Shown here piece by piece: positions 1,998-15,325 of a DNA stretch of 64,000 bases. Within the stretch, counting starts at the first letter, position 1, and each line of letters begins with the position of its first letter. The notes beneath the pieces are model-generated. The model did no database searches. It was given only the letters and a program-made list of their open reading frames with translations, and was not told the origin of the DNA. This stretch comes from Enterobacter asburiae (GTDB taxonomy: Bacteria; Pseudomonadota; Gammaproteobacteria; Enterobacterales; Enterobacteriaceae). Location of the stretch: positions 2,666,001 to 2,730,000 of the forward strand of contig JAAQVN010000001.1 of assembly GCA_011754535.1 (NCBI GenBank), given 5' to 3'. A program made the translations under genes and the position numbers.

Positions 1998-2043
1998 AAG
2001 GATTAAATAGTCTGCACGCGCTATTTAATCCTTTAATTTTTTG
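1998..2043 (+). terminator. Rho-independent terminator of the sap operon
   Basis: A perfect 13-bp stem (AAGGATTAAATAG at 1998-2010 with its complement at 2021-2033), a 10-base loop and then a T-rich run (TTAATTTTTT). The A+T-rich stem is long, and it marks the boundary between the conserved sap operon and the accessory block. Confidence 0.85.
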
Positions 2044-2124
2044 TCTCCATCCCTGCTCCATAGTTTAAGCACTATCCATCAACAGTTCTTCTCCAGAATA
2101 TCCGGATATTACGGAGGAGAAGAA

Positions 2125-3039
2125 ATGAACACCGCCACTTATGTTCTGAAATACGCAGAGTATCTCATCAGAAAATGCCGTTCATATTTAATGACGGACC
2201 TTAATTTTCATACTGCAAGGCTCGAAAAGACATCAGGGAAAACCCCTGACATTAAATCACCCACTACGTTGAGTGAAAAAATCTGCCATCGACTGGTCTA
2301 TGACCATAATAATCTCTACACAATGCTTGCCGATAAACTCGCAGTCCGTGAATACGTTGCGTCCAGAACAACGCGAGTAAAAGCGGTGCCCCTGATTGGA
2401 GTATACCGCAGGTTTTCGCATATTGATTTTTCAACACTGCCCGATCAATTCGTCCTTAAGTGCAATCATGATAGTGGTAGCACAATAATCTGTACAAACA
2501 AAGACCAGTTCAATTACCGGCAGGCCCGAAAAAAGCTCAATCTCGCATTAAAGAAGAATTTGTATTACACCACGCGCGAGTGGCAGTACAAAAATATTAT
2601 ACCCGTTATACTGTGTGAGCCTTATGTCGATCTTTTCAATAATGCGGACAGGAACAGCACGCCGGAAATGCTGCGAATTCACTGTTTTCACGGCATCGCA
2701 CACTATGTTGAGGCCGATTTTACGGATGACCGCGGCAGAGAGTTTATCAACGTTTACGACCGATACTGGAATTTACAGCCTTTCCGGATGGAATACCCTA
2801 ATACGCCGGTAGCGCCCGGCGAGCCGGGGTTGTTCCGTGAGGCTTTGCTGGCCGCTCAGGAACTGGCGAATGGCCTTGACTACTGCCGCGTTGACCTCAT
2901 GCTAAAAAGCAATGAAATTTACTTCAGTGAAATAACCTTAAGCCCAAAACGAGGCAAACTGCGTATTACCCCGATGGAGTGGGATACAAAATTAGGCGCT
3001 ATATGGCAGTTGCCGCTATCGGCGGACAGGCCAGGCTGA
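2125..3039 (+). CDS. TupA-like ATP-grasp protein
   Basis: 304 residues from ATG 2125, chosen because AGGAG at 2113-2117 sits at good spacing; an in-frame TTG at 2041 has no such site and lies in the sap terminator. The pattern TLSEKI, then DK..VREYV, then FVLKCNHDSGS, then EWQYKNI, then ILCEPYV, then CRVDLML and EITLSP is what I know from TupA-like ATP-grasp proteins (PF14305). That family is usually found in polysaccharide and teichuronopeptide gene clusters, forming amide or glycan-linked bonds with ATP. Here no glycosyltransferase, polymerase or export gene accompanies it, so the substrate is unknown. The gene looks richer in A+T than the core genes around it, which suggests transfer. It converges on the sensor-kinase gene, with 14 bases between their stops. 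Confidence 0.75.
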   Translation: MNTATYVLKYAEYLIRKCRSYLMTDLNFHTARLEKTSGKTPDIKSPTTLSEKICHRLVYDHNNLYTMLADKLAVREYVASRTTRVKAVPLIGVYRRFSHIDFSTLPDQFVLKCNHDSGSTIICTNKDQFNYRQARKKLNLALKKNLYYTTREWQYKNIIPVILCEPYVDLFNNADRNSTPEMLRIHCFHGIAHYVEADFTDDRGREFINVYDRYWNLQPFRMEYPNTPVAPGEPGLFREALLAAQELANGLDYCRVDLMLKSNEIYFSEITLSPKRGKLRITPMEWDTKLGAIWQLPLSADRPG

Positions 3040-3053
3040 CCTCCCGCCAGGGC

Positions 3054-4118
3054 TCAGGCATCGGGCCAGGTCAGCTTGAACAGGGAGTGGTTTTGCTTCG
3101 ATAAGGTATACGTTACGTCGCCACCATGAGCCAGCATGATGGCTTTTACCACCGATAAGCCTAAACCACATCCTTCAGGATTCAACTCTCTGGCACCATT
3201 ATCCCGCTGGAAGGGTTGAAATAAGAAATCATGAAATTCTCTGGGGATGCCCGGCCCGCCATCCTGAATAAGAATAAAATTGCCTTTATCAGAGACGCCA
3301 TTTTTTACGATGAGTTTCCGCGAAGTTGAATAATGTAATGCGTTGTCAAACAGAACGGCCAGACACTGATTGATGCGCAAGGGGTCGAACACGCATCGCT
3401 GTTCTCTCAGCTCAGTCTTAAGCGTAAATTGGTTGCGTTTGAACTCGGGCATGAAAGTATCAAGCGCATCCTGGATTGTGCCTTTGAGGTCTGTTCTGGA
3501 TTTATACAACGTATAACCCGCCCCGCCGTCCGAGCTGATCACCCGGAGATCTTCAATCAAACGGGTTAACCCCTCAGTCTGTCTGAGAAGGTTATGAAAG
3601 AGTTGCGGATCCGGCTCAAAGACGCCGTCAACCAGCCCCTGAAGCCGACCGCGTAAAATCGTGACCGGGGTTCTCAGCTCATGGGCAATGGCGGCATTCC
3701 AGGATTTCCTCTGAATATCCAGCGTCTGGAGTTTTTCCGCCATTTCATTGAAATCCGTGACCAGATGATTGACCTCTCCGAGCCGGGAGCTGGCACAATA
3801 AGCCCGGGCGTCCAGTTGACCCTGAGAAATTTTTCTCAGGCTGGACGCTACCGCGTTTAACGGGGTGAGTATTCGCGAAGAAAGTTTGATCGTTAAAAAT
3901 ATCGCGATTATCAGACTGATTGTTGTGGCGGTCCCGATCCACACCCAGTCCCACATCGTCATCTGCTCATCATCACCCGCAACGGCGCCGCCGGGGAGGT
4001 GATCGAGAATAAAAGAGTAAAAAAACCAGGAGCCCAGTACCGCAATGGCAATTATCGTAAACGTCAGCAGCAGCATATACGTTAAGATCTGCCGACTCAG
4101 GACAGAATCTCTGTTCAT
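3054..4118 (-). CDS. AdeS-like sensor histidine kinase
   Basis: 354 residues. Two membrane segments (about 11-38 and 57-80) flank a short periplasmic loop rich in D/E, followed by a HAMP linker, the dimerisation/phosphoacceptor box AHELRTP with His146, the N box (LFDNALHYS), and G boxes QDGGPGIP and GCGLGLSVV. The stretch WNAAIAHELRTP..ILRGRLQG..DGVF..D matches my recollection of Acinetobacter baumannii AdeS more closely than E. coli BaeS. AdeS controls the AdeABC efflux pump. The start overlaps the regulator's stop by four bases (ATGA), giving one regulator-then-sensor operon. It lies divergent to an AdeB-like permease gene, as adeRS does to adeABC. The inducing signal is unknown. Confidence 0.88.
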   Translation of the reverse strand: MNRDSVLSRQILTYMLLLTFTIIAIAVLGSWFFYSFILDHLPGGAVAGDDEQMTMWDWVWIGTATTISLIIAIFLTIKLSSRILTPLNAVASSLRKISQGQLDARAYCASSRLGEVNHLVTDFNEMAEKLQTLDIQRKSWNAAIAHELRTPVTILRGRLQGLVDGVFEPDPQLFHNLLRQTEGLTRLIEDLRVISSDGGAGYTLYKSRTDLKGTIQDALDTFMPEFKRNQFTLKTELREQRCVFDPLRINQCLAVLFDNALHYSTSRKLIVKNGVSDKGNFILIQDGGPGIPREFHDFLFQPFQRDNGARELNPEGCGLGLSVVKAIMLAHGGDVTYTLSKQNHSLFKLTWPDA

Positions 4119-4819
4119 TTTTTCTCCCCAAGCCGATAGCCCATCCCCCGAATACTTTCAGGAATGCCATAAAGGCCCGCAAGCTCCAGCTTTTTACGCA
4201 GCTTGCTCATATGGCTGTCTACCGTTCTGTCGAGCGTATCGCCCTCCGGCAGACATGCGTTGAGTAACTCTTCCCTGGAACAGACCTTACGCGGGTATCT
4301 CACCAGATAAGTAAGAAGTTTAAATTCCGTCGTCGTTAATACCGGCGAGACCACCTCTTCGCCCGCGGTGACCTCAACGTAGAAATCGTCCGGATAGACC
4401 GTAATAAAAGGCGTCCTGAGAGGCACGGCCCCCGCCTGCTGGAGAGCCGGTTTGGTTCTGCGCAGCACCGCTTCAACCCGCGCGACCACTTCGGATGGGT
4501 TGAAAGGTTTGATGACGTAATCATCCGCGCCAAGCCGCAGCCCCATCAGCTTATCCACGTCCTGATCGAGAGCGGACACCATAATAACAGGCACGGTACT
4601 TTCCTGGCGGAGCGTCGTGAGTACGCTCCAGCCATCGCACAGGGGCAAATGGATGTCCAGCAAGATAAGATCCGGTTTATGGAGTCGATTGAGCGCTATC
4701 GCCTGTTCGCCCTGCCGGGCTCTCAGCGTTTTCATCCCTGAACGCTCCAAGTAACTCATCAATATATCGGCAATTTCGTCTTCATCTTCAACAACAAGGA
4801 TTAGAGTATTTTTGTTCAT
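4115..4819 (-). CDS. AdeR-like response regulator (OmpR family)
   Basis: 234 residues. The receiver domain has acidic pocket residues near 11-13, phosphoacceptor Asp55 (LILLDIHLP) and Lys104 (VIKPFNPSEV). The C-terminal winged helix carries LTTTEFKLL and RTVDSHMSKLRKKL. Phrases such as SALDQDVDKLMGLRLGADD and RTVDSHMSKLRKKLE are very close to AdeR as I recall it. The start ATG 4819 is preceded on the minus strand by GGAGATAAA. The likely targets are the divergent genes at 5085-8801, inferred from position and from the AdeRS precedent. It is the first gene of the kinase operon. Confidence 0.9.
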   Translation of the reverse strand: MNKNTLILVVEDEDEIADILMSYLERSGMKTLRARQGEQAIALNRLHKPDLILLDIHLPLCDGWSVLTTLRQESTVPVIMVSALDQDVDKLMGLRLGADDYVIKPFNPSEVVARVEAVLRRTKPALQQAGAVPLRTPFITVYPDDFYVEVTAGEEVVSPVLTTTEFKLLTYLVRYPRKVCSREELLNACLPEGDTLDRTVDSHMSKLRKKLELAGLYGIPESIRGMGYRLGEKK

Positions 4820-5084
4820 TTTATCTCCGCGGGTGAAATCCCTTTGAGCACGCTATCAGATATCTTTAGCACAATAAGACACAGGCTCCGGGAAAAAGTG
4901 CCGTGGCCGCGAAAATTTCCTGGGTTAATTTAAGTGTCCGGCAATTTCTCCATACAGCCTACACATTCAGTCAATAAAGGCTCGACAATGACAGTCCAGA
5001 ATAGTTATTCGGAGTTAAACCGTCTTCCGTTTAACGTAGTAAATACCCCTGTCGCTTAAAGGCTTTCTGAATTTGGTTGAGATA
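4820..5084. promoter_or_regulatory. Divergent regulatory region of the efflux block
   Basis: 265 bases between the regulator gene (leftward) and the small membrane-protein gene (rightward). It must hold both promoters. I see an inverted repeat GTTAAAC at 5014-5020 and GTTTAAC at 5029-5035 with an 8-base spacer, and a single TAAGTGTCCG at 4931-4940. No clear sigma-70 -35/-10 pair stands out in either direction. A short reading frame (4988-5059) lies within it. Confidence 0.5.
4988..5059 (+). CDS. Possible 23-residue leader or small protein
   Basis: ATG 4988 to TAA 5059, 23 codons, preceded by AAAGG at 4976-4980 with a 7-base spacer, which is a respectable ribosome-binding site. The peptide begins MTVQNSYSEL and ends NTPVA. 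It is polar, has no membrane segment and matches nothing I recognise. It ends 25 bases before the next start. It could be a real microprotein, a leader peptide or chance. Confidence 0.3.
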   Translation: MTVQNSYSELNRLPFNVVNTPVA

Positions 5085-5477
5085 ATGAACATGGAACTTT
5101 CGAAATACCTCTCTCCTAAAAAAATCGGCATATTCTCCCTGTTCCTGCTGCTAACGTGGGGATTACTTTATACGTGGCTGATACTGATGCATAAAATGGA
5201 TGAAAAAGTCGCCGCAACGCTGCCCTCTTCCCCCATTATCTATGGCTGCATTGCCTTGTCGGTTGTCTCTCTGATAATACAAAACAAAGCAGGTGCATTC
5301 ACAGAATTACTTCTCATCGCCTTCTGGCTGATGGTGATTTTTGTTTATCTCATTATTACGTTCACTGTTCTGCTGAACGCTACGCCAGATTTTAACGATC
5401 TGGTGTTTTACTACGAGTGTTATTTAATTCTGTTTTTTGGCGGTGCACCGCTTTACCTCATCATGAGAATGATTTAA
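5085..5477 (+). CDS. Small multispanning membrane protein, unknown
   Basis: 130 residues from ATG 5085, with ATG 5091 and TTG 5073 as alternatives; the only Shine-Dalgarno-like bases are GAG at 5079-5081, so the start is uncertain. Hydrophobicity by eye suggests four membrane segments, at about 13-33, 51-69, 73-98 and 108-128, with a few charged residues between them (KMDEK). I do not recognise the family. It occupies the place that adeA, the membrane-fusion protein, holds in Acinetobacter, and reads toward the RND permease 228 bases downstream. It has no lipobox, hairpin or beta-barrel features of a membrane-fusion protein, so it is not a diverged AdeA. A role as accessory or immunity-like partner is speculation. 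Confidence 0.65.
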   Translation: MNMELSKYLSPKKIGIFSLFLLLTWGLLYTWLILMHKMDEKVAATLPSSPIIYGCIALSVVSLIIQNKAGAFTELLLIAFWLMVIFVYLIITFTVLLNATPDFNDLVFYYECYLILFFGGAPLYLIMRMI

Positions 5478-5610
5478 ACAACCGCGCTGTTTCGCTCCAC
5501 ACTCTCTCCATAAACCGCCCATGTCCGCTAAACAGGCGAGCTGTAGAGTCTCCATCACACCATTTGAACAAAAATAACTCACTGAAATAGTTATATACCT
5601 GTTACCCATA

Positions 5611-5706
5611 ATGATGAACTTCACTAATAACCGTCGTTCTCCTCAGGGATACCGGCAAGCGCGTGTCAACCGACGACGAAATTCACGTATCTGGAAGTTA
5701 AATTAA
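5611..5706 (+). CDS. Possible short upstream ORF coupled to RND gene
   Basis: A 31-codon frame from ATG ATG at 5611-5616 to TAA 5704-5706, whose stop overlaps the permease start as TAATG. This arrangement is typical of translational coupling. The peptide is very basic (RRSPQGYRQ..VNRRRNSR) and has no domain. No good ribosome-binding site precedes it, so it may be the decayed tail of a lost upstream gene rather than a functional leader. Confidence 0.3.
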   Translation: MMNFTNNRRSPQGYRQARVNRRRNSRIWKLN

Positions 5707-8700
5707 TGCCTCATTTTTTTATTGAACGTCCCATTTTCGCCTGGGTAGTGGCGCTTTTTATCGTCCTGGCGGGTGTATTGTCTATCCCCCGGCTGCCGGT
5801 TGCGCAGTATCCGGCGGTGGCACCGCCTGGGATCATTATTTCTGTCACCTACCCGGGTGCCAGCCCCGATATTATGAATACTTCAGTGGTGTCGTTAATT
5901 GAGCGCGAAATATCTGGCGTCGATAATTTGCTCTACTTCGAATCATCCAGTGACACAACCGGTTCTGCGTCTATTACCGTGACGTTTAAGCCCGGCACGG
6001 ACATCAAGCTGGCGCAGATGGACCTTCAGAACCAGATCAAAATTGTGGAGCCGCGTTTGCCACAGGCGGTCAGGCAAAATGGTATCAACGTCGAGGCGGC
6101 AAATTCCGGATTTTTAATGATGGTGGGATTGAAATCTCCAACCGGTAAATTTGAGGAGGCCGATTTAAGCGATTATTTCGCCCGGCATGTCAGCGACGAA
6201 CTTCGCCGCGTACCTGGAGTAGGGAAAATTCAGCTTTTTGGTGGCGAAAAAGCGCTACGCATCTGGCTGGACCCAATGAAGCTTCATAGCTACGGACTTT
6301 CTGTGAGCGATGTGCTTACCGCTGTTGGCCAGCAAAATGCCCTGGTTTCACCCGGCAAGACGGGAGATGAACCGGCATCTGAAGGGCAAGGCGTAACGTA
6401 TCCGATCGCCGTCAAGGGGCAGCTCGCTTCCGTAGAGGCTTTCAGGAATATTACACTGAAATCAGAGGCGTCCGGCGCAAGGCTGAAGCTGTCCGACGTC
6501 GCACGCATTGAGTCCGGCCTGCAAAGCTACGCTTTCGGCATCCGCGAAAATGGGGTACCCGCAACGGCTGCGGCAGTCCAGTTATCGCCCGGCGCCAATG
6601 CGATGAGTACGGCTGCAGGCGTACGCGCGCGCGTCGACGAACTTTCTCAGGTGTTGCCGGAAGGAATGATGTTTACGGTTCCCTTCGATACCGCGCCTTT
6701 TGTGAAGCTTTCCATCATGAAGGTGGTGCAGACATTTGTAGAAGCGATGGTCCTGGTCTTCCTCGTGATGCTGCTGTTTCTGCACAAGATACGCTGTACG
6801 CTTATCCCGGCGATTGTTGCCCCCGTCGCACTTCTTGGCACCTTCACGGTGATGCTACTGAGTGGATACTCCATCAATATTCTGACCATGTTCGGCATTG
6901 TTCTGGCGATAGGGATTATCGTAGATGACGCTATTGTGGTCGTGGAGAACGTTGAGCGTCTGATGGAAGAAAAAAAACGCTCTCCGCGCGACGCAACCCG
7001 GGAGGCCATGAATGAAATCACGCCAGCAATTATCGGGATCACGCTGGTACTTACCGCCGTCTTTATTCCCATGGGGTTTGCTGAAGGATCCGTCGGGATT
7101 ATTTATCGACAATTTTGTATCTCCATGGCGGTATCGATACTGTTGTCGGCATTTCTTGCCCTCACGCTGACCCCCGCGCTTTGCGCGACGCTACTTAAGC
7201 CTCACAGCGCAGAGAAGCACGGTGGCGGCAGGTTCGCGGCAGGGTTTAACGCCCGCTTTCGTACGCTCACGAGGTGGTACGAATCCGGGCTGGGCACGGT
7301 GCTAAGACGAACCGGGCGTATGCTGCTGCTGTACGTTGCGCTTTGCGCTGCGCTGTTTTTGGGGCTTTCTTCGCTGCCCTCGTCCTTTCTGCCGGATGAA
7401 GATCAGGGCTATTTTATGTCCTCAATTCAGCTGCCTTCCGATGCCACCATGCAGCGCACCCTGAACGTGGTTAAAAAATTTGAAGAGGAAATTGCGGCCC
7501 GGCCGGATATTGAAAGCAACATTATGATCCTGGGGTTTGGTTTTTCAGGATCGGGCCCGAATTCGGCCATGGGCTTCACCACGCTGAAAGACTGGAAAGA
7601 TCGGCAGGGTTCGACTGCACAAAATGAAGCTGACCATATACAGGCCAGCATGGCGAGCGTCTCTGATGCCGTCACGATGAGCCTGCTCCCGCCGGCCATT
7701 TCGGATATGGGCACCTCCTCGGGCTTCACCTGGTACGTGCAGGACAGGGCGGGACTGGGCTACGAGGCGTTAAAGAGTGCGACCGATGCGCTGGTTGTGA
7801 AGGCTAATCAGCGTCCTGAACTGAGTGACGTGTATATAGACGGTCTGCCGGAAGGAACAAGTCTGGCCCTTCACATTGACCGGGAAAAAGCGGAAGCACT
7901 GGGCGTTTCATTCGATGAAATCAACCAGACGCTCTCGGTCACCATGGGGTCGAACTACGTTAATGACTACCCGAACAACGGCCGCGTTCAGCAGGTCATT
8001 ATTCAGGCCGATGCCCCTTACCGCATGCAGCCTGAGCAGATCCTGAAATTATCGGTAAAAAACCGTATGGGGCAGATGGTGCCAGTATCTACGTTTGCGA
8101 CGCTTTCCTGGAACGTTGCGCCGCAGCAGTTGACGCGTTATCAGGGATATTCTGCTATCCGCATTACCGGCAGTGCGGCCCCGGGCACATCCAGCGGTAC
8201 CGCAATGAGGGCCATGGAGACGTTGTCACGAGATTTACCGCAGGGGATGGCCGGCGAGTGGGCCGGGAGTTCATTGCAGGAGAGAAAATCCGAATCTCAA
8301 CTCCCGGGTCTGATCGTTCTGTCGATACTGGTCGTGTTCATGGTGCTCGCCGCCCTGTATGAGAGCTGGTCAATTCCCTTTGCGGTGATGCTGGTCGTTC
8401 CCCTGGGGCTTATCGGTGCGGTGGCTGCCGTTTCCGTTGCGGGCACGACGAATGATGTTTTCTTTAAGGTCGGTCTTATTACCCTGATAGGCCTCTCCGC
8501 CAAGAACGCCATTCTGATTGTCGAGTTTGCAAGGCAGCTCCACCGGGAAGGACAATCCCTGCTGGCGGCAACGATACAGGCCGCAAGCCAGCGCCTGCGC
8601 CCTATTCTGATGACATCGTTAGCCTTTACGTTAGGGGTGGTGCCACTGATGCTGGCGCGTGGCGCGAGTGACAGCACGCAGCACGCTATCGGCACCGGGG

Positions 8701-8801
8701 TGTTTGGCGGCATGATTAGCGGCACGCTTCTCGCGATCTTCTTCGTCCCGGTATTCTTTATTGTCGTTGCGCGTTTCGTTGAAGACGCCAGGGACGGATA
8801 G
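5706..8801 (+). CDS. AdeB-like RND multidrug efflux permease
   Basis: 1031 residues, full length for a hydrophobe/amphiphile-efflux RND pump. It opens with FFIERPIFAWVVALFIV (first membrane helix) and holds the usual two repeats of six helices plus two large periplasmic porter loops. The proton-relay residues are all present: Asp407 and Asp408 (IIVDDAIVVVENVER), Lys933 (SAKNAILIVEF) and Thr970 (LMTSLAFT). Segments such as FDTAPFVKLSI, LGFGFSGSGPN and NDYPNNGRVQQVI resemble AdeB more than AcrB or OqxB. Expected role: inner-membrane proton antiporter exporting drugs in a complex with a periplasmic adaptor and an outer-membrane channel. Neither partner gene is beside it, so it would have to recruit AcrA- or MdtE-like and TolC-like proteins. 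The start overlaps a short upstream frame (TAATG). No inactivating change is visible. Confidence 0.92.
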   Translation: MPHFFIERPIFAWVVALFIVLAGVLSIPRLPVAQYPAVAPPGIIISVTYPGASPDIMNTSVVSLIEREISGVDNLLYFESSSDTTGSASITVTFKPGTDIKLAQMDLQNQIKIVEPRLPQAVRQNGINVEAANSGFLMMVGLKSPTGKFEEADLSDYFARHVSDELRRVPGVGKIQLFGGEKALRIWLDPMKLHSYGLSVSDVLTAVGQQNALVSPGKTGDEPASEGQGVTYPIAVKGQLASVEAFRNITLKSEASGARLKLSDVARIESGLQSYAFGIRENGVPATAAAVQLSPGANAMSTAAGVRARVDELSQVLPEGMMFTVPFDTAPFVKLSIMKVVQTFVEAMVLVFLVMLLFLHKIRCTLIPAIVAPVALLGTFTVMLLSGYSINILTMFGIVLAIGIIVDDAIVVVENVERLMEEKKRSPRDATREAMNEITPAIIGITLVLTAVFIPMGFAEGSVGIIYRQFCISMAVSILLSAFLALTLTPALCATLLKPHSAEKHGGGRFAAGFNARFRTLTRWYESGLGTVLRRTGRMLLLYVALCAALFLGLSSLPSSFLPDEDQGYFMSSIQLPSDATMQRTLNVVKKFEEEIAARPDIESNIMILGFGFSGSGPNSAMGFTTLKDWKDRQGSTAQNEADHIQASMASVSDAVTMSLLPPAISDMGTSSGFTWYVQDRAGLGYEALKSATDALVVKANQRPELSDVYIDGLPEGTSLALHIDREKAEALGVSFDEINQTLSVTMGSNYVNDYPNNGRVQQVIIQADAPYRMQPEQILKLSVKNRMGQMVPVSTFATLSWNVAPQQLTRYQGYSAIRITGSAAPGTSSGTAMRAMETLSRDLPQGMAGEWAGSSLQERKSESQLPGLIVLSILVVFMVLAALYESWSIPFAVMLVVPLGLIGAVAAVSVAGTTNDVFFKVGLITLIGLSAKNAILIVEFARQLHREGQSLLAATIQAASQRLRPILMTSLAFTLGVVPLMLARGASDSTQHAIGTGVFGGMISGTLLAIFFVPVFFIVVARFVEDARDG

Positions 8802-8934
8802 CGGATCCTCGCTGGTTGGATGAGGCGAAGCTGCTGCCGGGTGATATACTGGACGAATGCTGAAATTTTGAGCCCCCGCCAGCCCGCGCCTCACCTTTTA
8901 GGGCATTCGTCTTCAGAGATCGGCGAGAAATATC

Positions 8935-8965
8935 GTGACACAAGGGGCCGTGAGTGGGCTATAAT
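8935..8965 (+). promoter_or_regulatory. Probable fabI promoter
   Basis: A perfect -10 TATAAT at 8960-8965, with GTGACA at 8935-8940 as a weak -35 (19-base spacing) or GACACA at 8937-8942 (17-base spacing). It lies about 90 bases before the fabI start. Two copies of AATTTCGA follow at 8963-8970 and 8974-8981; their meaning is unknown. Confidence 0.55.
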
Positions 8966-9054
8966 TTCGAGCTAATTTCGAATGATTTTGAAATACTGCC
9001 TGTAACGCTATGAATTACAAGGCAAAATAAGCAATGAATATAAGGATTAAAGCT

Positions 9055-9843
9055 ATGGGTTTTCTTTCCGGTAAGCGCATTCTGGTGACTGGCGTTGCCA
9101 GCAAACTGTCCATCGCATACGGCATCGCACAGGCAATGCATCGCGAAGGCGCTGAGCTGGCGTTCACCTACCAGAACGACAAGCTGAAAGGCCGTGTTGA
9201 AGAGTTTGCCGCGCAGCTGGGTTCCAGCATTGTTCTGGAATGTGACGTTGCACAAGACGAAAGCATCGACGGCATGTTTGCTGAACTGGCAAAAGCATGG
9301 CCGAAATTCGACGGTTTCGTTCACTCCATTGGCTTCGCTCCTGGCGACCAACTGGACGGCGACTACGTGAACGCGGTTACCCGTGATGGCTTCAAAATCG
9401 CTCACGACATCAGCTCCTACAGCTTCGTAGCGATGGCAAAATCCTGCCGCGCGATGCTGAACCCGGGTGCAGCCCTGCTGACCCTGTCCTACCTGGGCGC
9501 TGAACGTGCTATCCCTAACTACAACGTTATGGGTCTGGCGAAAGCGTCTCTGGAAGCCAACGTACGCTACATGGCAAACGCAATGGGTCCAGAAGGCGTG
9601 CGTGTTAACGCCATCTCTGCGGGTCCTATCCGTACCCTGGCGGCGTCCGGCATCAAAGATTTCCGTAAAATGCTGGCACACTGCGAAGCGGTTACCCCGA
9701 TTCGTCGTACCGTTACCATTGAAGATGTGGGTAACTCTGCTGCATTCCTGTGCTCTGATCTTTCCGCAGGTATCTCCGGCGAAGTGGTTCACGTTGACGG
9801 CGGCTTCAACATCGCTGCAATGAACGAGCTGGAAATTAAATAA
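9055..9843 (+). CDS. fabI: Enoyl-[ACP] reductase (NADH)
   Basis: 262 residues, the same length as E. coli FabI and nearly identical in sequence. It performs the last reduction in each fatty-acid elongation cycle and is the target of triclosan and isoniazid-like inhibitors. A short-chain dehydrogenase fold is shown by the nucleotide-binding [10 protein letters not shown] start and the catalytic Tyr156 and Lys163 (NYNVMGLAK). Gly93 (HSIGFAP), the position changed in classical triclosan resistance, is wild type. ATG 9055 is chosen over upstream in-frame ATG 9034 because AAGGA at 9042-9046 is correctly spaced and the protein then begins MGFLSGKR as in E. coli. Confidence 0.98.
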
Positions 9844-9849
9844 GCTGTG

Positions 9850-9880
9850 GCTCTCTTCCCGCACGGGAAGAGAGCTTACC
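9850..9880 (+). terminator. Terminator hairpin after fabI
   Basis: An 11-bp perfect stem GCTCTCTTCCC (9850-9860) with its complement at 9865-9875 and a 4-base loop. The following run is only TTACCCC, so the hairpin is strong but the T-tract is poor. Confidence 0.6.
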
Positions 9881-9999
9881 CCCTCCGCACTCCCCCCTTC
9901 GTTATTCCGTTCTGCTATTTGTTATCACCTAACAATATTTTTCCCTTTATCTGCCTTACGCCAGGATATTGATCGCCATTTTGAGATCAAGGAACGCAC

Positions 10000-10986
10000 A
10001 TGGAACAACGCCGTTTTTCCGGCAAAGGCCACTGGTATCACGAAACCCAGTCAAACCACGCGCAGCCGGATGTGCTGCCTCTGGTGCCCGAAGCCGCTAA
10101 CGTCGACGATCGTTTTTTGCTCGATTTAGCCCTGCCAGATGAGATTGTCGCCGCCTGTACCGGCTGGCTTGCTCCAGCCAGATCCTTATGCCACCAGCTG
10201 TTCCCACTCTCACTTCCCGTAAACCGCCTGCGAACGCTCAGCGCCTACGATCGGTTAAGTACCGCGTTGACGGTGGCGCAGGCCTGCGGCGTTCAACGGC
10301 TTTGCAACCACTACGCCGCCCTCCTCGCCCCGCTGCCGGGTCCCGACTCCTCCCGCGAAAGTAACCGACGGCTGGCGCAAATCACCCAGTACGCCCGCCA
10401 GCTCGCCAGCTCGCCTGACGTCATTGATGATAAGGCGCGAAACGAGCTTGATGAGGTAGGTCTGTCTACCTATGACATAGTGGTGATTAACCAGATAATC
10501 GGCTTTATCGGTTTTCAGGCGCGCGTGGTCGCCGTCTTTCAGGCGCTGCTTGGCCATCCCGTTCGCTGGTTGCCGGGCCATCATATTCAGCCACACAGCC
10601 TGCCGGCGTGCTCCGACGCGTGGATAGTGCTTCTGCCCGTTGTCGAGCTTCGCTATGCCAGTGCGCATCAACTTGAGTCCCTCTCCCGCTGGCAGGCAGA
10701 GCCCGCGCTTGAGGCGCTGACGCCGGTACTGTGTCATGAACCGACCTTGCTCGACCTGACGGGTGAGATCCTGATAAACAGCCGGGAAACGATTTCGCAT
10801 CCTCCTCCAGCGCTTACGGCAGCAGCCGAATTGCTGACACGCTCGCCGGACCGCTTCAGTGCCGCACAATTTACCCCGCTAACGGAAGAAGGACTTACTG
10901 CCGTTCAGGCGATCAACCTGCTGAGCCAATGCGCGCTGGAGGGCTGGCTCAATCGGCTAAAAGTCGCTTCCGGCAAAGCGGAATAA
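10000..10986 (+). CDS. CMD/AhpD-like peroxidase-related protein
   Basis: 328 residues, start ATG 10000 with AAGGAA at 9989-9994. It looks like two carboxymuconolactone-decarboxylase/AhpD-type units: the first around residues 80-115 (LSTALTVAQACGVQRLCNHYAALL), the second around 150-190 (GLSTYDIVVINQIIGFIGFQARVV). Proteins of this kind are annotated as peroxidase-related or CMD-domain proteins. The classic AhpD motif CxxC is not intact: the cysteines of the first unit are six apart (CGVQRLC, followed by NHY), and the second unit has none. I do not recognise a specific function. E. coli lacks a gene here between fabI and rnb. It has its own promoter space of about 120 bases and no partner gene. 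Confidence 0.55.
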   Translation: MEQRRFSGKGHWYHETQSNHAQPDVLPLVPEAANVDDRFLLDLALPDEIVAACTGWLAPARSLCHQLFPLSLPVNRLRTLSAYDRLSTALTVAQACGVQRLCNHYAALLAPLPGPDSSRESNRRLAQITQYARQLASSPDVIDDKARNELDEVGLSTYDIVVINQIIGFIGFQARVVAVFQALLGHPVRWLPGHHIQPHSLPACSDAWIVLLPVVELRYASAHQLESLSRWQAEPALEALTPVLCHEPTLLDLTGEILINSRETISHPPPALTAAAELLTRSPDRFSAAQFTPLTEEGLTAVQAINLLSQCALEGWLNRLKVASGKAE

Positions 10987-11074
10987 CCACACTCTTTCCC
11001 CAAAGAGCGCTTGCTGTAGCAGTGAGAATCGCGTAAAACTGTCAGCCGCTCAATGGCTACGAAAATAGAACATT

Positions 11075-13009
11075 ATGTTTCAGGACAACCCGCTGCTAGC
11101 GCAGCTTAAACAGCAACTGCATTCCCAGACGCCGCGTGCAGAAGGGGTCGTGAAAGCCACGGAAAAGGGCTTTGGCTTCCTTGAAGTTGACGCGCAGAAA
11201 AGCTACTTCATTCCGCCACCGCAGATGAAGAAAGTGATGCATGGCGATCGCGTCATGGCCGTCATCCATACCGAGAAAGAACGTGAATCCGCCGAGCCGG
11301 AAGAACTGATCGAGCCGTTCCTGACCCGCTTTGTGGGCAAAGTGCAGAGAAAGGACGATCGTCTTTCTGTCGTGCCGGATCACCCCCTGCTGAAAGATGC
11401 CATTCCGTGCCGCGCCGCCCGCGGCGTTGAGCATGATTTTAAAGAAGGTGACTGGGCCGTAGCAGAAATGCGCCGTCATCCTTTGAAAGGCGACCGCGGT
11501 TTCTATGCTGAACTGACCCAGTTCATCACCTTTGGCGACGACCATTTCGTCCCGTGGTGGGTCACGCTGGCGCGCCATAATCTTGAAAAAGAAGCGCCGA
11601 ACGGCGTGGCAACCGAGATGCAGGATGAAGGTCTGACGCGCCGCGATCTCACCGCGCTGGAGTTTGTCACCATCGACAGCGCCAGCACCGAAGATATGGA
11701 CGATGCGCTCTACGCTGAAGAGAGCGCCGATAGCAAACTGCATTTGACCGTCGCCATTGCCGATCCCACCGCCTGGATCGTAGAAGGCAGCAAGCTGGAC
11801 GAAACGGCGAAAATCCGCGCGTTCACGAACTACCTGCCGGGCTTTAACATCCCGATGCTGCCGCGCGAACTGTCTGACGACCTCTGCTCGCTGCGCCCAA
11901 ATGAGGTGCGTCCGGTTCTTGCCTGCCGCATGACCATTGCCGCCGATGGCGCGATTGAAGACGATATCGAGTTCTTTGCCGCCACCATCGAATCCAAAGC
12001 CAAGCTGGCCTACGATAACGTCTCCGACTGGCTGGAAAATACCGGCAGCTGGAAACCTGAATCAGACGTCATAGCCGCGCAGCTCCGTCTGCTGCACCGC
12101 ATCTGTCTGAACCGCGGCGAGTGGCGTAAAACCCACGCGCTGGTGTTCAAAGACCGACCGGATTATCGCTTTGTTCTGGGCGAGAAAGGTGAAGTGCTGG
12201 ACATCGTGGCCGAACCGCGACGCATTGCGAACCGCATCGTTGAAGAGGCAATGATTTCCGCCAACATCTGTGCCGCACGCGTGCTGCGCGACAGGCTGGG
12301 CTTTGGTATTTACAACGTTCACACCGGATTCGACCCGGCCAATACCGAAGCGCTGGCGGCTCTGCTGAAGAATCACGATGTGCATGTTGATCCGGAAGAA
12401 GTGCTGACGCTGCCAGGCTTCTGCAAGCTTCGCCGCGAGCTGGACGCTCAGCCGTCCGGTTTCCTGGATAGCCGTATTCGCCGCTTCCAGTCCTTCGCGG
12501 AAATCAGCACCGAGCCAGGCCCGCACTTCGGCCTCGGTCTGGAGGCCTACGCCACCTGGACATCCCCAATCCGCAAGTATGGCGATATGGTTAACCACCG
12601 CCTGCTGAAAGCGATTATCAAGGGCGAAACCATTGCCCGGCCTCAGGACGACACGACCCTGCAGATGGCCGAGCGTCGCCGTCTGAACCGCATGGCGGAA
12701 CGTGACGTAGGAGACTGGCTTTATGCGCGCTTCCTGCAGGATAAAGCCGGTACCGATACCCGTTTCGCGGCGGAGATCGTTGATATCAGCCGCGGCGGAA
12801 TGCGCGTACGCCTGGTGGATAACGGTGCGGTAGCCTTTATCCCTGCTCCGTTCCTGCACGCCGTTCGTGACGAACTGATCTGCAGTCAGGAAAGCGGCAC
12901 CGTGCAAATTAAAGGCGAGACGGTTTACAAAGTCACTGACGTGATTGACGTGACTATCGCTGAAGTTCGCATGGAAACCCGCAGTATTATTGCGCGCCCT
13001 GTCGCCTGA
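11075..13009 (+). CDS. rnb: Exoribonuclease II
   Basis: 644 residues, as in E. coli. RNase II degrades single-stranded RNA processively from the 3' end. The order is two N-terminal cold-shock domains, the RNB catalytic domain and a C-terminal S1 domain. The metal-binding cluster [10 protein letters not shown] carries Asp207, Asp209 and Asp210 at the same numbering as in E. coli. The start ATG 11075 has no strong Shine-Dalgarno sequence (preceded by GAAAATAGAACATT), which also holds in E. coli as far as I recall. A strong terminator follows, and the downstream pdeR gene follows the E. coli arrangement; PdeR has been reported to influence RNase II stability. Confidence 0.98.
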
Positions 13010-13020
13010 TAACCTCTGCT

Positions 13021-13062
13021 AAATTGTCGGTCATTTCCGTTCGGAAAGGCCGACAATTTTTT
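13021..13062 (+). terminator. Rho-independent terminator of rnb
   Basis: Stem AAATTGTCGG at 13021-13030 pairs with 13050-13059. A smaller TTTCC/GGAAA stem lies inside, and a T-run follows. Confidence 0.9.
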
Positions 13063-13251
13063 CTCCCGTCTTTCCCCCCGCAAAAGCATCATTTTTCTTA
13101 CTTTTTTCAGTCCCGGCTCGCCCAAAATGGCCATAATTATCTACAGTAAAAGAGTGCTGTCCTGTTCGGGCACGTGGATTTTATACGCTCAGCATTTTTA
13201 TATGCCTGATGCGTTTTATTATAAAAAAGCTCAGAAAAACAATACTTTCAC

Positions 13252-13272
13252 TGCGGCTTTGCCGCAATTTTT
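13252..13272 (+). terminator. Terminator-like hairpin upstream of pdeR
   Basis: TGCGGC (13252-13257), loop TTT, GCCGCA (13261-13266), then ATTTTT. It has the form of an intrinsic terminator, but it stands 60 bases before the pdeR start and 190 bases after the rnb terminator. It is either a second stop for rnb read-through or an attenuator in a pdeR leader. Confidence 0.55.
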
Positions 13273-13333
13273 AACGGAAAAGTCGACGGCAAATGAATAA
13301 TTTGTGCGCTAATACGTCGCGGCGGGAGAAATC

Positions 13334-15325
13334 ATGATCGACGAACTTGTGCAGAATTTGCTGTTTCGTTACACGGGTACTCACAGCCCGTGGTGGCGAT
13401 TGTCGGCTGATAGCAACGCTCTGCACCTTGCTGCCAGCGAAAATGCAGACGTCACTCAGGTGGTCACGCTGACCGACGATCAGGCCGCACTGATCCGCCA
13501 GCTAACGGTGATTACCTCCAGCCTTTCTATGAACCTTTCTCTTTATGGCGAAGAAGTTCCCGTCCATCTTGTCGGACGAAAAATAACCCGCAACGAGTGG
13601 GCCGGCACGGCCTCCGCCTGGAACGATACGCCCTCCGTGGCACGCGATCTGGCTCAGGGGCTCTCCTTTGCAGAACAGGTTGTTTCTGAAGCGAATTCCG
13701 TCATTGTTATTCTCGATCAAAACGGCAATATCCAGCGTTTTAACCGCCTGAGTGAAGAGTACACCGGTCTTAAAGAACACGAAGTCATTGGCCAGAACGT
13801 GTTTGAACTGTTCATGAGCCGCAGCGAAGCGGCAGCCTCGAAGCGCAACATTGCGGGTATCTTTCGCAACAGCAGCTCCTACGAAGTCGAACGCTGGATC
13901 AAAACGCGGAAAGGGCAACGCTTGTTTCTGTTCAGAAATAAATTCGTTCACAGCGGCAGCGGTAAAAATGAAATTTTTCTTATCTGTTCAGGGACCGACA
14001 TTACCGAAGAACGGCGGGCGCAAGAGCGCCTGCGCGTGTTGGCCAATACTGATACCATCACCGGCTTGCCAAACCGCAACGCGATCCACGAGCTGATTTC
14101 AGGCGCCATAGCCAACCGCGGCGATACGCAGGTTGGCGTGGTGTACCTCGACCTGGATAACTTCAAAAAGGTCAACGATGCCTACGGACATATGTTCGGC
14201 GATCAGCTGCTGCAGGCGGTTGCACTTGCCCTTCTGAGTTGCCTGGATGAGGGGCAAGTTTTAGCGCGGCTCGGTGGCGATGAGTTTATCGTTATGGCCA
14301 CCCATACCTCTCAGGGCTCTCTGGAAGCGATGGCGTCGCGCATTTTGACCCGCCTGCGTCAGCCGTTCAGAATCGGTCTGATTGAGGTTTACACCGGTTG
14401 CTCCCTGGGAATCGCCCTCGCGCCGCAACACGGGAACGATCGGGAAAGCGTGATTCGCAATGCCGATACCGCTATGTACACCGCCAAGGAAAACGGCCGT
14501 GGCAAGTTCTGCGTCTTCTCCCCCGAGATGAACCAGCGCGTGTTTGAGTATCTGTGGCTGGACACCAACCTGCGTAAAGCGCTGGATAACGATCAGCTCC
14601 TGATCCACTACCAGCCAAAAATCACCTGGCGCGGCGAGGTCAGAAGCCTTGAAGCGCTGGTCCGCTGGCAGTCGCCCGAGCGCGGGCTGATCCCTCCTCT
14701 GGAATTTATCTCTTATGCCGAGGAGTCCGGTTTGATTGTCCCGCTGGGTCGCTGGGTGATGCTTGATGTGGTTCGGCAGGTGGCAAAATGGCGAGACAAG
14801 GGAATTAACCTGCGCGTGGCGGTGAACGTCTCAGCACGTCAGCTCGCCGACCAGACAATTTTCAGTGAGTTAAAGCAGGCGCTTAAGGATCTGCATTTTG
14901 AGTACTGCCCTATCGATGTCGAGTTGACCGAAAGCTGTCTTATCGAAAACGAAGAGCTGGCGCTCTCTGTGATCCAGCAATTCAGCCGGCTCGGGGCACA
15001 AATTCATCTGGACGATTTCGGTACCGGCTACTCTTCTCTCTCCCAGCTGGCGCGTTTTCCTATCGATGCTATTAAGCTCGATCAGGCTTTTGTCAGAGAT
15101 ATTCATAAGCACTCTGTCTCCCAGTCTCTGGTGCGCGCCATTGTCGCAGTGGCGCAGGCGCTAAATCTGCAGGTGATTGCCGAAGGGGTGGAGAACGCAA
15201 AAGAGGACGCCTTTCTGACCAAGAACGGCGTCAACGAACGACAGGGTTTTCTTTTCGCTAAGCCGATGCCCGCTGCCGCATTCGAGCGCTGGCTAAAACG
15301 ATATCAAGCGCGACAACAGCGTTAA
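13334..15325 (+). CDS. pdeR: Cyclic-di-GMP phosphodiesterase PdeR
   Basis: 663 residues (E. coli PdeR, formerly YciR/Gmr, has 661). A PAS domain at about 110-225 is followed by a GGDEF domain with intact GGDEF at 314-318 and an EAL domain with EAL at 440-442 and [10 protein letters not shown] downstream. By knowledge of the E. coli protein, it is a trigger enzyme: it binds and breaks c-di-GMP, and at low c-di-GMP inhibits DgcM and MlrA, repressing csgD and curli. Start ATG 13334 follows GGGAG. A possible weak terminator, GCCATAA (15327) pairing with TTATGGC (15363) before TTTTTT, follows the stop. Confidence 0.95.

What the first reader, a model, noticed from the sequence alone, without database searches (positions are those of the whole stretch)
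3054..8801. AdeRS-AdeB-like efflux locus that has lost its membrane-fusion protein
The kinase and regulator resemble Acinetobacter AdeS/AdeR and the permease resembles AdeB (proton-relay residues intact), in the same divergent geometry as adeRS/adeABC. No adeA (periplasmic adaptor) or adeC gene is present: the adeA position is taken by a 130-residue membrane protein and non-coding DNA. Either the pump borrows an adaptor and TolC from elsewhere, or it works in an unusual way. An intact, apparently regulated but incomplete RND system in an enterobacterium is worth study for drug resistance.
Basis: partly seen in the sequence, partly recalled or inferred. Interest (0 to 1): 0.7.

Follow-up and report, generated by a model that had tools for sequence, protein, structure and literature searches.

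The report
Colistin-response locus with adaptor-less pump
This is the Enterobacter copy of a known antibiotic-defence locus (crrB-crrA-crrC-kexD): a sensor pair that switches on a drug pump which has no adaptor gene of its own and, in a close relative, works with the housekeeping AcrA and TolC proteins.

Summary
Kinase, regulator, 134-residue membrane protein and permease are CrrB, CrrA, CrrC and KexD: CrrC passes NCBI's CrrC cut-off, K. pneumoniae CrrB and KexD are 68% and 83% identical. The same locus in E. cloacae ATCC 13047 was reported to need AcrA and TolC (PMC9664853) and to be an AdeRS-AdeB homologue with only the permease present (PMC11892822). AcrA and TolC genes are present here.

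What the calls add: (1) 28 adaptor-less KexD-type permeases form one clade among adaptor-bearing AdeB-like pumps, so the adaptor was probably lost once, long ago. (2) The 'non-coding' DNA before kexD is the scar of an ABC_membrane_3 gene, not of adeA. (3) Three AdeR-type direct repeats lie before crrC, kexD and the neighbouring ATP-grasp gene (2125-3039): 3 of only 4 such sites in 64 kb, found in 32, 28 and 31 of 33 crr loci, window included. That predicts a CrrA regulon that includes an ATP-grasp ligase.

The parts
1998..2033 (+). terminator-like hairpin after sapF
   Evidence: 14-pair stem and T-run, (consensus scan only: 7 such sites in the region scanned, 4.1 expected)
2045..2062 (+). predicted CrrA box 3; begins 80 bp before ATG 2125 of the ATP-grasp gene
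   Evidence: 11 of 14 bases of the two half-sites; one of 4 sites at that score in 64 kb, both strands; same spacing in 29 of 33 crr loci
2125..3039 (+). TupA-like ATP-grasp ligase gene (ORF listed from TTG 2041; ATG 2125 follows a ribosome-binding-site-like GGAGGAG)
   Evidence: PF14305, 145 bits against a cut-off of 25; beside crrB in the crr loci
3054..4118 (-). crrB, sensor histidine kinase (AdeS-like)
   Evidence: (67.6% to annotated K. pneumoniae CrrB); H-box histidine at residue 146
4115..4819 (-). crrA, OmpR-type response regulator (AdeR-like)
   Evidence: (78% to K. pneumoniae)
4948..4965 (+). predicted CrrA box 1, between crrA and crrC
   Evidence: 2 pattern matches in 64 kb, 0.02 expected; a fragment with a like motif was bound by the regulator of E. 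cloacae in PMC11892822
5073..5477 (+). crrC, four-helix membrane protein (true start probably ATG 5085 or 5091)
   Evidence: NF051485 CrrC, 165.4 bits, cut-off 150; model pLDDT 85.8
5495..5512 (+). predicted CrrA box 2, before kexD
   Evidence: 13 of 14
5611..5701 (+). scar of a deleted ABC_membrane_3 (ECL_01759-type) gene: first and last codons remain, about 0.8 kb missing, frame lost
   Evidence: alignment of the window with six relatives; PF13748 in relatives
5706..8801 (+). kexD, RND permease without adaptor

Best explanation
This is a crr locus. Stress by cationic agents activates CrrA through CrrB and probably other kinases; CrrA binds AdeR-type direct repeats and switches on crrC, kexD and, as predicted here, the ATP-grasp gene. 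CrrC raises polymyxin tolerance through lipid A modification (the route differs between reports). KexD, a proton-driven permease whose lineage lost its own adaptor long ago, docks on the housekeeping adaptor AcrA and TolC, competing with AcrB, as AcrD does (recalled). Shown here by sequence: gene identities, lack of an adaptor, presence of AcrA and TolC genes, one adaptor-less clade, three conserved repeats. Shown by others in a related species: AcrA/TolC dependence, CrrA control of crrC and kexD. Inferred: that this holds in this strain, and that the ATP-grasp gene is a direct CrrA target.
For: CrrC equivalog. Orthologues in K. pneumoniae with annotated CrrB. E. cloacae ATCC 13047: NOSO-502 MIC falls from 256 to 8 without acrA and to 2 without tolC, rises to 2048 without acrB, and is 2 without both acrB and kexD; regulator needed for kexD and crrC expression; regulator binds the motif fragment. 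AcrA 825.6 bits (cut-off 765), TolC 817 (495), AcrD 2256 (1854) in this genome; PmrB 538 (314). Trees. Repeats. K. pneumoniae RNA-seq: crrA, crrC, the pump and a neighbouring 'glycosyl transferase' rise up to over 500-fold in crrB-mutant populations under colistin; in the crrB mutant with colistin crrC and that neighbour rise about 256-fold.
Against: Nothing was measured in this strain. CrrA and CrrB have no NCBIfam model of their own in the listing; the AdeR and AdeS models score below cut-off. In ATCC 13047 crrC, ECL_01759 and kexD lie on one transcript, so box 2 need not be a separate promoter. Deleting the CrrB homologue there had little effect on crrC and colistin MIC, so another kinase must act. 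In the K. pneumoniae crrB mutant without drug only crrC rose more than 256-fold; pump and 'glycosyltransferase' rose 2-4 fold. One study found that a kexD knockout changed only colistin susceptibility. The repeat pattern was drawn from box 1 and a recalled AdeR site, then used to find boxes 2 and 3; the loci are kin, so their counts are not independent. Box 2 is lacking in 5 of 33 loci.
Confidence: 0.93

Rival explanations
1. A recent local deletion removed an adeA-like adaptor from this genome, leaving a crippled pump.
For: There is a real deletion scar between crrC and kexD.
Against: The scar's two ends match the first and last codons of an ABC_membrane_3 gene. No adaptor was found inside the crr block of 32 distinct related loci. 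The pump's proton-relay residues are intact.
Confidence: 0.02
2. KexD works without any adaptor, or uses CrrC or the ABC_membrane_3 protein in place of one.
For: Those genes lie between regulator and pump; the ABC_membrane_3 gene stands directly before the pump in four Pantoea loci and on an E. coli plasmid that have no CrrC.
Against: Both look like inner-membrane proteins without an adaptor domain. The ABC gene is missing in this genome and in several relatives. AcrA and TolC were needed in ATCC 13047.
Confidence: 0.03
3. KexD uses another adaptor of this genome as well as, or instead of, AcrA.
For: Eight further RND-type adaptors beside AcrA lie next to permeases in this genome.
Against: Deletion of acrA alone cut the NOSO-502 MIC 32-fold in ATCC 13047; but it left 8 against 2 without tolC.
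Confidence: 0.1

Closest known systems
crrAB-crrC-kexD of Klebsiella pneumoniae
   Same: Same genes and order, same neighbour (ATP-grasp gene beside crrB), no adaptor found; CrrB 67.6%, CrrA 78%, KexD 83% identical.
   Different: Different chromosomal site; the record looked at has the ABC_membrane_3 gene, an IS element and interrupted crrC and kexD frames.
ECL_01758-ECL_01762 of Enterobacter cloacae ATCC 13047 (also called AdeB/AdeR of E. cloacae)
   Same: Same locus in the same genus, published as having only the permease and as AcrA/TolC-dependent (PMC9664853, PMC11892822).
   Different: ATCC 13047 has ECL_01759 between crrC and kexD; here that gene is a scar. Absence of ECL_01759 was already reported for Enterobacter cloacae complex clusters IV and IX.
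AdeRS-AdeABC of Acinetobacter and relatives elsewhere (such as DzrR-DesABC)
   Same: Regulator and permease kin, often divergent layout, CTCCA(C/T)-type direct repeats.
   Different: The relatives looked at have an adaptor gene directly before the permease; their permeases are about 60-64% identical to KexD.
AcrD
   Same: RND permease without an adaptor gene beside it, in the same genome.
   Different: Different clade, 49% identity; a second, independent adaptor loss on the tree.

Membership tests
crr locus (CrrAB-CrrC-KexD) | CrrC protein above NCBIfam NF051485 cut-off | tested here: met
   165.4 bits, cut-off 150
crr locus (CrrAB-CrrC-KexD) | Orthologous CrrA, CrrB, KexD in the same order | tested here: met
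   against K. pneumoniae; against relatives
crr locus (CrrAB-CrrC-KexD) | CrrA activates crrC and kexD | not testable with these tools
   shown in ATCC 13047; repeats found here
crr locus (CrrAB-CrrC-KexD) | KexD functions with AcrA and TolC | not testable with these tools
   shown in ATCC 13047; both genes present here
AdeRS-AdeABC | AdeR and AdeS above their equivalog cut-offs | tested here: not met
   AdeR 260.8 (cut-off 340), AdeS 303.9 (500)
AdeRS-AdeABC | Adaptor AdeA in the permease operon | tested here: not met
AdeRS-AdeABC | AdeR-type direct repeat in the divergent spacer | tested here: met
   4948-4965; AdeR repeat as printed in PMC10052836
AcrB / AcrD | Permease above equivalog cut-off | tested here: not met
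   AcrB model 1123 (cut-off 2150), AcrD model 1173 (1854)
MdtABC-BaeSR | Permease, kinase and regulator above equivalog cut-offs | tested here: not met
   MdtC 493 (1774), BaeS 159 (603), BaeR 172 (380)

The most novel reading that the evidence does not exclude
The crr locus is a three-box CrrA regulon whose neglected third arm is an ATP-grasp ligase (called a glycosyltransferase in print, if BN373_26571 is its orthologue), a likely surface-modifying partner of CrrC; and its pump belongs to one clade of AdeB-type permeases that shed its adaptor once in Enterobacterales, where AcrA is at hand, and has since been re-wired to different neighbours (CrrAB, TetR, another two-component system, an NRPS cluster) and moved on plasmids.
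Probability: 0.55. Interest if true: 0.5.

Novelty: already known. Interest (0 to 1): 0.3.

Why it matters
The locus affects tolerance to last-line cationic drugs in Enterobacter and Klebsiella. That the pump depends on AcrA tells where it can be blocked. The conserved repeats point to an ATP-grasp gene as a direct member of the regulon, which would explain the strongly induced 'glycosyltransferase' neighbour in K. pneumoniae RNA-seq. The clade result shows that adaptor loss in RND pumps happened at least twice on the trees made here (KexD clade and AcrD) and was stable.

Tried and rejected

Rows dropped before counts. First tree: of the loci held, the near-identical genus loci L054, L056, L057, L059-L063 and L066, duplicates, the class-level L125-L139, and the broken or split permeases of L071, L087, L108 and L145 were not put in; L004, L005 and L008 (distant permeases; the first two a tandem, MdtBC-like by recall) were taken out. 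Second tree: 36 of the 56 rows, my choice. Five genomes fetched twice (L052/L072, L060/L074, L061/L076, L063/L073, L064/L075) were counted once.

Full report
What is there. The window lies at 2666001-2730000 of a 4.96 Mb genome; the nearest named relative found at this locus is Enterobacter chuandaensis (CrrC 96%, KexD 97%). Between sapF (1157-1963) and fabI lie a TupA-like ATP-grasp gene (+), a kinase and a regulator (-), a 134-codon membrane ORF (+) and an RND permease (+). NCBI's model names the small membrane protein CrrC above its cut-off; kinase and regulator score best on AdeS and AdeR but below cut-off; the permease passes only two general RND subfamily models. By solved structures the nearest relatives are AdeS, AdeR and 6ows/7b8p, which I recall to be AdeB.

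Identity. A K. pneumoniae record with annotated CrrB has the same block: CrrB 67.6%, CrrA 78%, KexD 83%, with an 'ATP-grasp fold amidoligase' beside crrB. The locus is therefore crrB-crrA / crrC-kexD. In the genus, a KexD of 82% identity or more over nearly its full length is present in 19 of 61 genomes, this one included; G392 matches only over residues 1-596 in an assembly whose crrA, crrB and crrC frames are split, and G406 holds a 66% relative of another system. A search of 392 genomes of the family for CrrC rang in 13, 9 of them over the cut-off.

The missing adaptor. Of the genome's 12 RND permeases, 9 have an adaptor gene next to them and a tenth follows one of these; KexD and AcrD have none. 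I searched with 10 adaptor sequences in 39 loci. 37 of these are crr loci, from 32 distinct genomes or plasmids; with the window that makes 33. None of the 32 has an adaptor in the crr block; four (L081, L083, L084, L087) have an adaptor-like match 3 kb or more outside it; the window was checked. The two non-crr loci, L070 and L110, have an adaptor directly before the permease. Seven further KexD-type loci without CrrC (an E. coli plasmid, five Pantoea, one Erwinia; permeases 69.6-80.3%) have none in the 13-15 kb looked at, while nine loci with permeases at 60.4-65.5% all have one directly before it, as do three class-level relatives at 61%.

Single loss. In a tree of 56 permeases (quick method) the 28 adaptor-less KexD-type rows are one clade (SH-aLRT 100) inside a 41-row AdeB-like clade (100); with AcrD the label needs two changes; the adaptor-bearing sister pair L070 and L144 joins at 94. 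In a second tree of 36 of these rows the 18 adaptor-less rows are one clade with 100/100 support and in 100% of 200 bootstrap trees; the same sister pair joins at 96/94. The labels are mine; the 28 rows hold near-copies; both runs warn of long branches among the distant rows; loci were taken as they came up, not sampled evenly.

The scar. In 12 of 18 genus loci looked at an ORF of about 303 codons lies between crrC and kexD; two of them tested are PF13748 ABC_membrane_3, and the one examined has no Walker A or LSGG motif. By position it is the ECL_01759 of ATCC 13047. In the window and in E. chuandaensis only its first and last codons remain, out of frame; L058 keeps other remnants, L055 and L064 next to nothing. 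PMC9664853 (passages) already reports clusters of the E. cloacae complex without ECL_01759.

Repeats. Alignment of the crrA-crrC spacer of 13 loci showed a conserved CTCCA(C/T)A-N4-CT(C/A)CACA repeat, close to the reverse complement of the AdeR site printed in PMC10052836 (passage). A pattern search with one mismatch found two matches in 64 kb with 0.02 expected: 4948-4965 and 5495-5512. Scoring the two half-sites out of 14, the window holds 4 sites of 11 or more on both strands; three lie before crrC, kexD and the ATP-grasp gene. Among 33 distinct crr loci, window included, box 1 scores 11 or more in 32 (in L084 and L087 more than 300 bases from crrA); box 2 scores 12 or more in 25, 11 in 3 and is lacking in 5; box 3 scores 11 or more in 31, 29 of them with the same spacing, 71-74 bp before a codon two codons ahead of the window's ATG. 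0.6% of random 206-base stretches of the window reach 11. In the whole genome a relaxed pattern gave 9 matches, 3 here, and the only two exact ones are here; the reversed control gave 3. Of ten adaptor-bearing relatives whose regulator spacer was scored, six have a site of 11 or 12 (L110, L112, L113, L145, L151, L154) and four do not (L146, L147, L153, L155). No site of 12 or more was found in L140-L143. The pattern was not blind, and the loci are kin.

Literature. PMC9664853 (abstract, passages and sections 8-11): the ATCC 13047 locus, AcrA/TolC dependence, control by the CrrA homologue. PMC11892822 (abstract, passages, sections 7 and 9): AdeR and AdeB homologues in E. cloacae, only the permease present, one motif upstream of the regulator, binding shown, one transcript for ECL_01760 to ECL_01758. 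PMC6026146 (passages): in K. pneumoniae, crrA, crrC, the pump BN373_26531 and a 'glycosyl transferase' BN373_26571 next to crrB are induced with crrB mutations; it cites earlier work for the same. So induction of that neighbour is already in print; by its number it should be the ATP-grasp gene, but I did not see its sequence. PMC7331594 (passages): kexD has no adjacent adaptor gene and was tested in E. coli with the host's AcrA. Two searches for the ATP-grasp gene as a CrrA target listed 12 of 40 and 12 of 27 papers; no listed title or abstract start names it so, and I read only PMC6026146 and PMC9664853 among them. In the parts of PMC11892822 that I read only one motif is mentioned; figures and supplements were not seen.

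CrrC. The model has four long helices (pLDDT 85.8) and no convincing match of known structure.

Verdict. Observation confirmed; interpretation half right; system already known in this genus. The added detail is the three-box regulon with the ATP-grasp gene and the single ancestral adaptor loss.

Noticed in passing
L109 (Salmonella enterica IncFII plasmid NZ_CP022492.1): A whole crr block (kinase, regulator, CrrC frame, a TetR gene, ABC six-TM gene, RND permease 80%, ATP-grasp gene) on a plasmid typed as mobilizable.
   Followed up: partly
L140 (E. coli plasmid CP057372.1): TetR + ABC six-TM + KexD-type permease (80%) + GNAT, no CrrC and no adaptor found, on a plasmid typed as mobilizable.
   Followed up: partly
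L110 (IncC plasmid NZ_ON209152.1; kinases of the same score on other plasmid records): A complete AdeRS-AdeABC-like set (two-component system divergent from adaptor, permease 60% to KexD, outer-membrane channel) on a plasmid typed as conjugative.
   Followed up: partly
L070 (G406) 2678-13756: The same sapF-fabI site holds a different RND system (MFS, adaptor, permease 66% to KexD, a TetR-like frame) in one genus member.
   Followed up: partly
L143 (Pantoea agglomerans plasmid NZ_CP068441.1): A KexD-type permease without adaptor sits beside NRPS genes, perhaps as a self-resistance pump.
   Followed up: no
L052/L072 (Enterobacter chuandaensis): crrB matches in two overlapping pieces of different frame, so it looks frameshifted in this strain.
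   Followed up: no
L108 (K. pneumoniae CP125156.1): crrC and kexD frames are interrupted and an ISKpn26 copy lies between crrC and the ABC gene; the record is a chromosome-sized 'plasmid'.
   Followed up: no
literature: PMC7331594 gives ECL_01758 and KexD as 97% identical, PMC9664853 gives 74% nucleotide identity to K. pneumoniae kexD; the window KexD is 83% identical to a K. pneumoniae protein.
   Followed up: no
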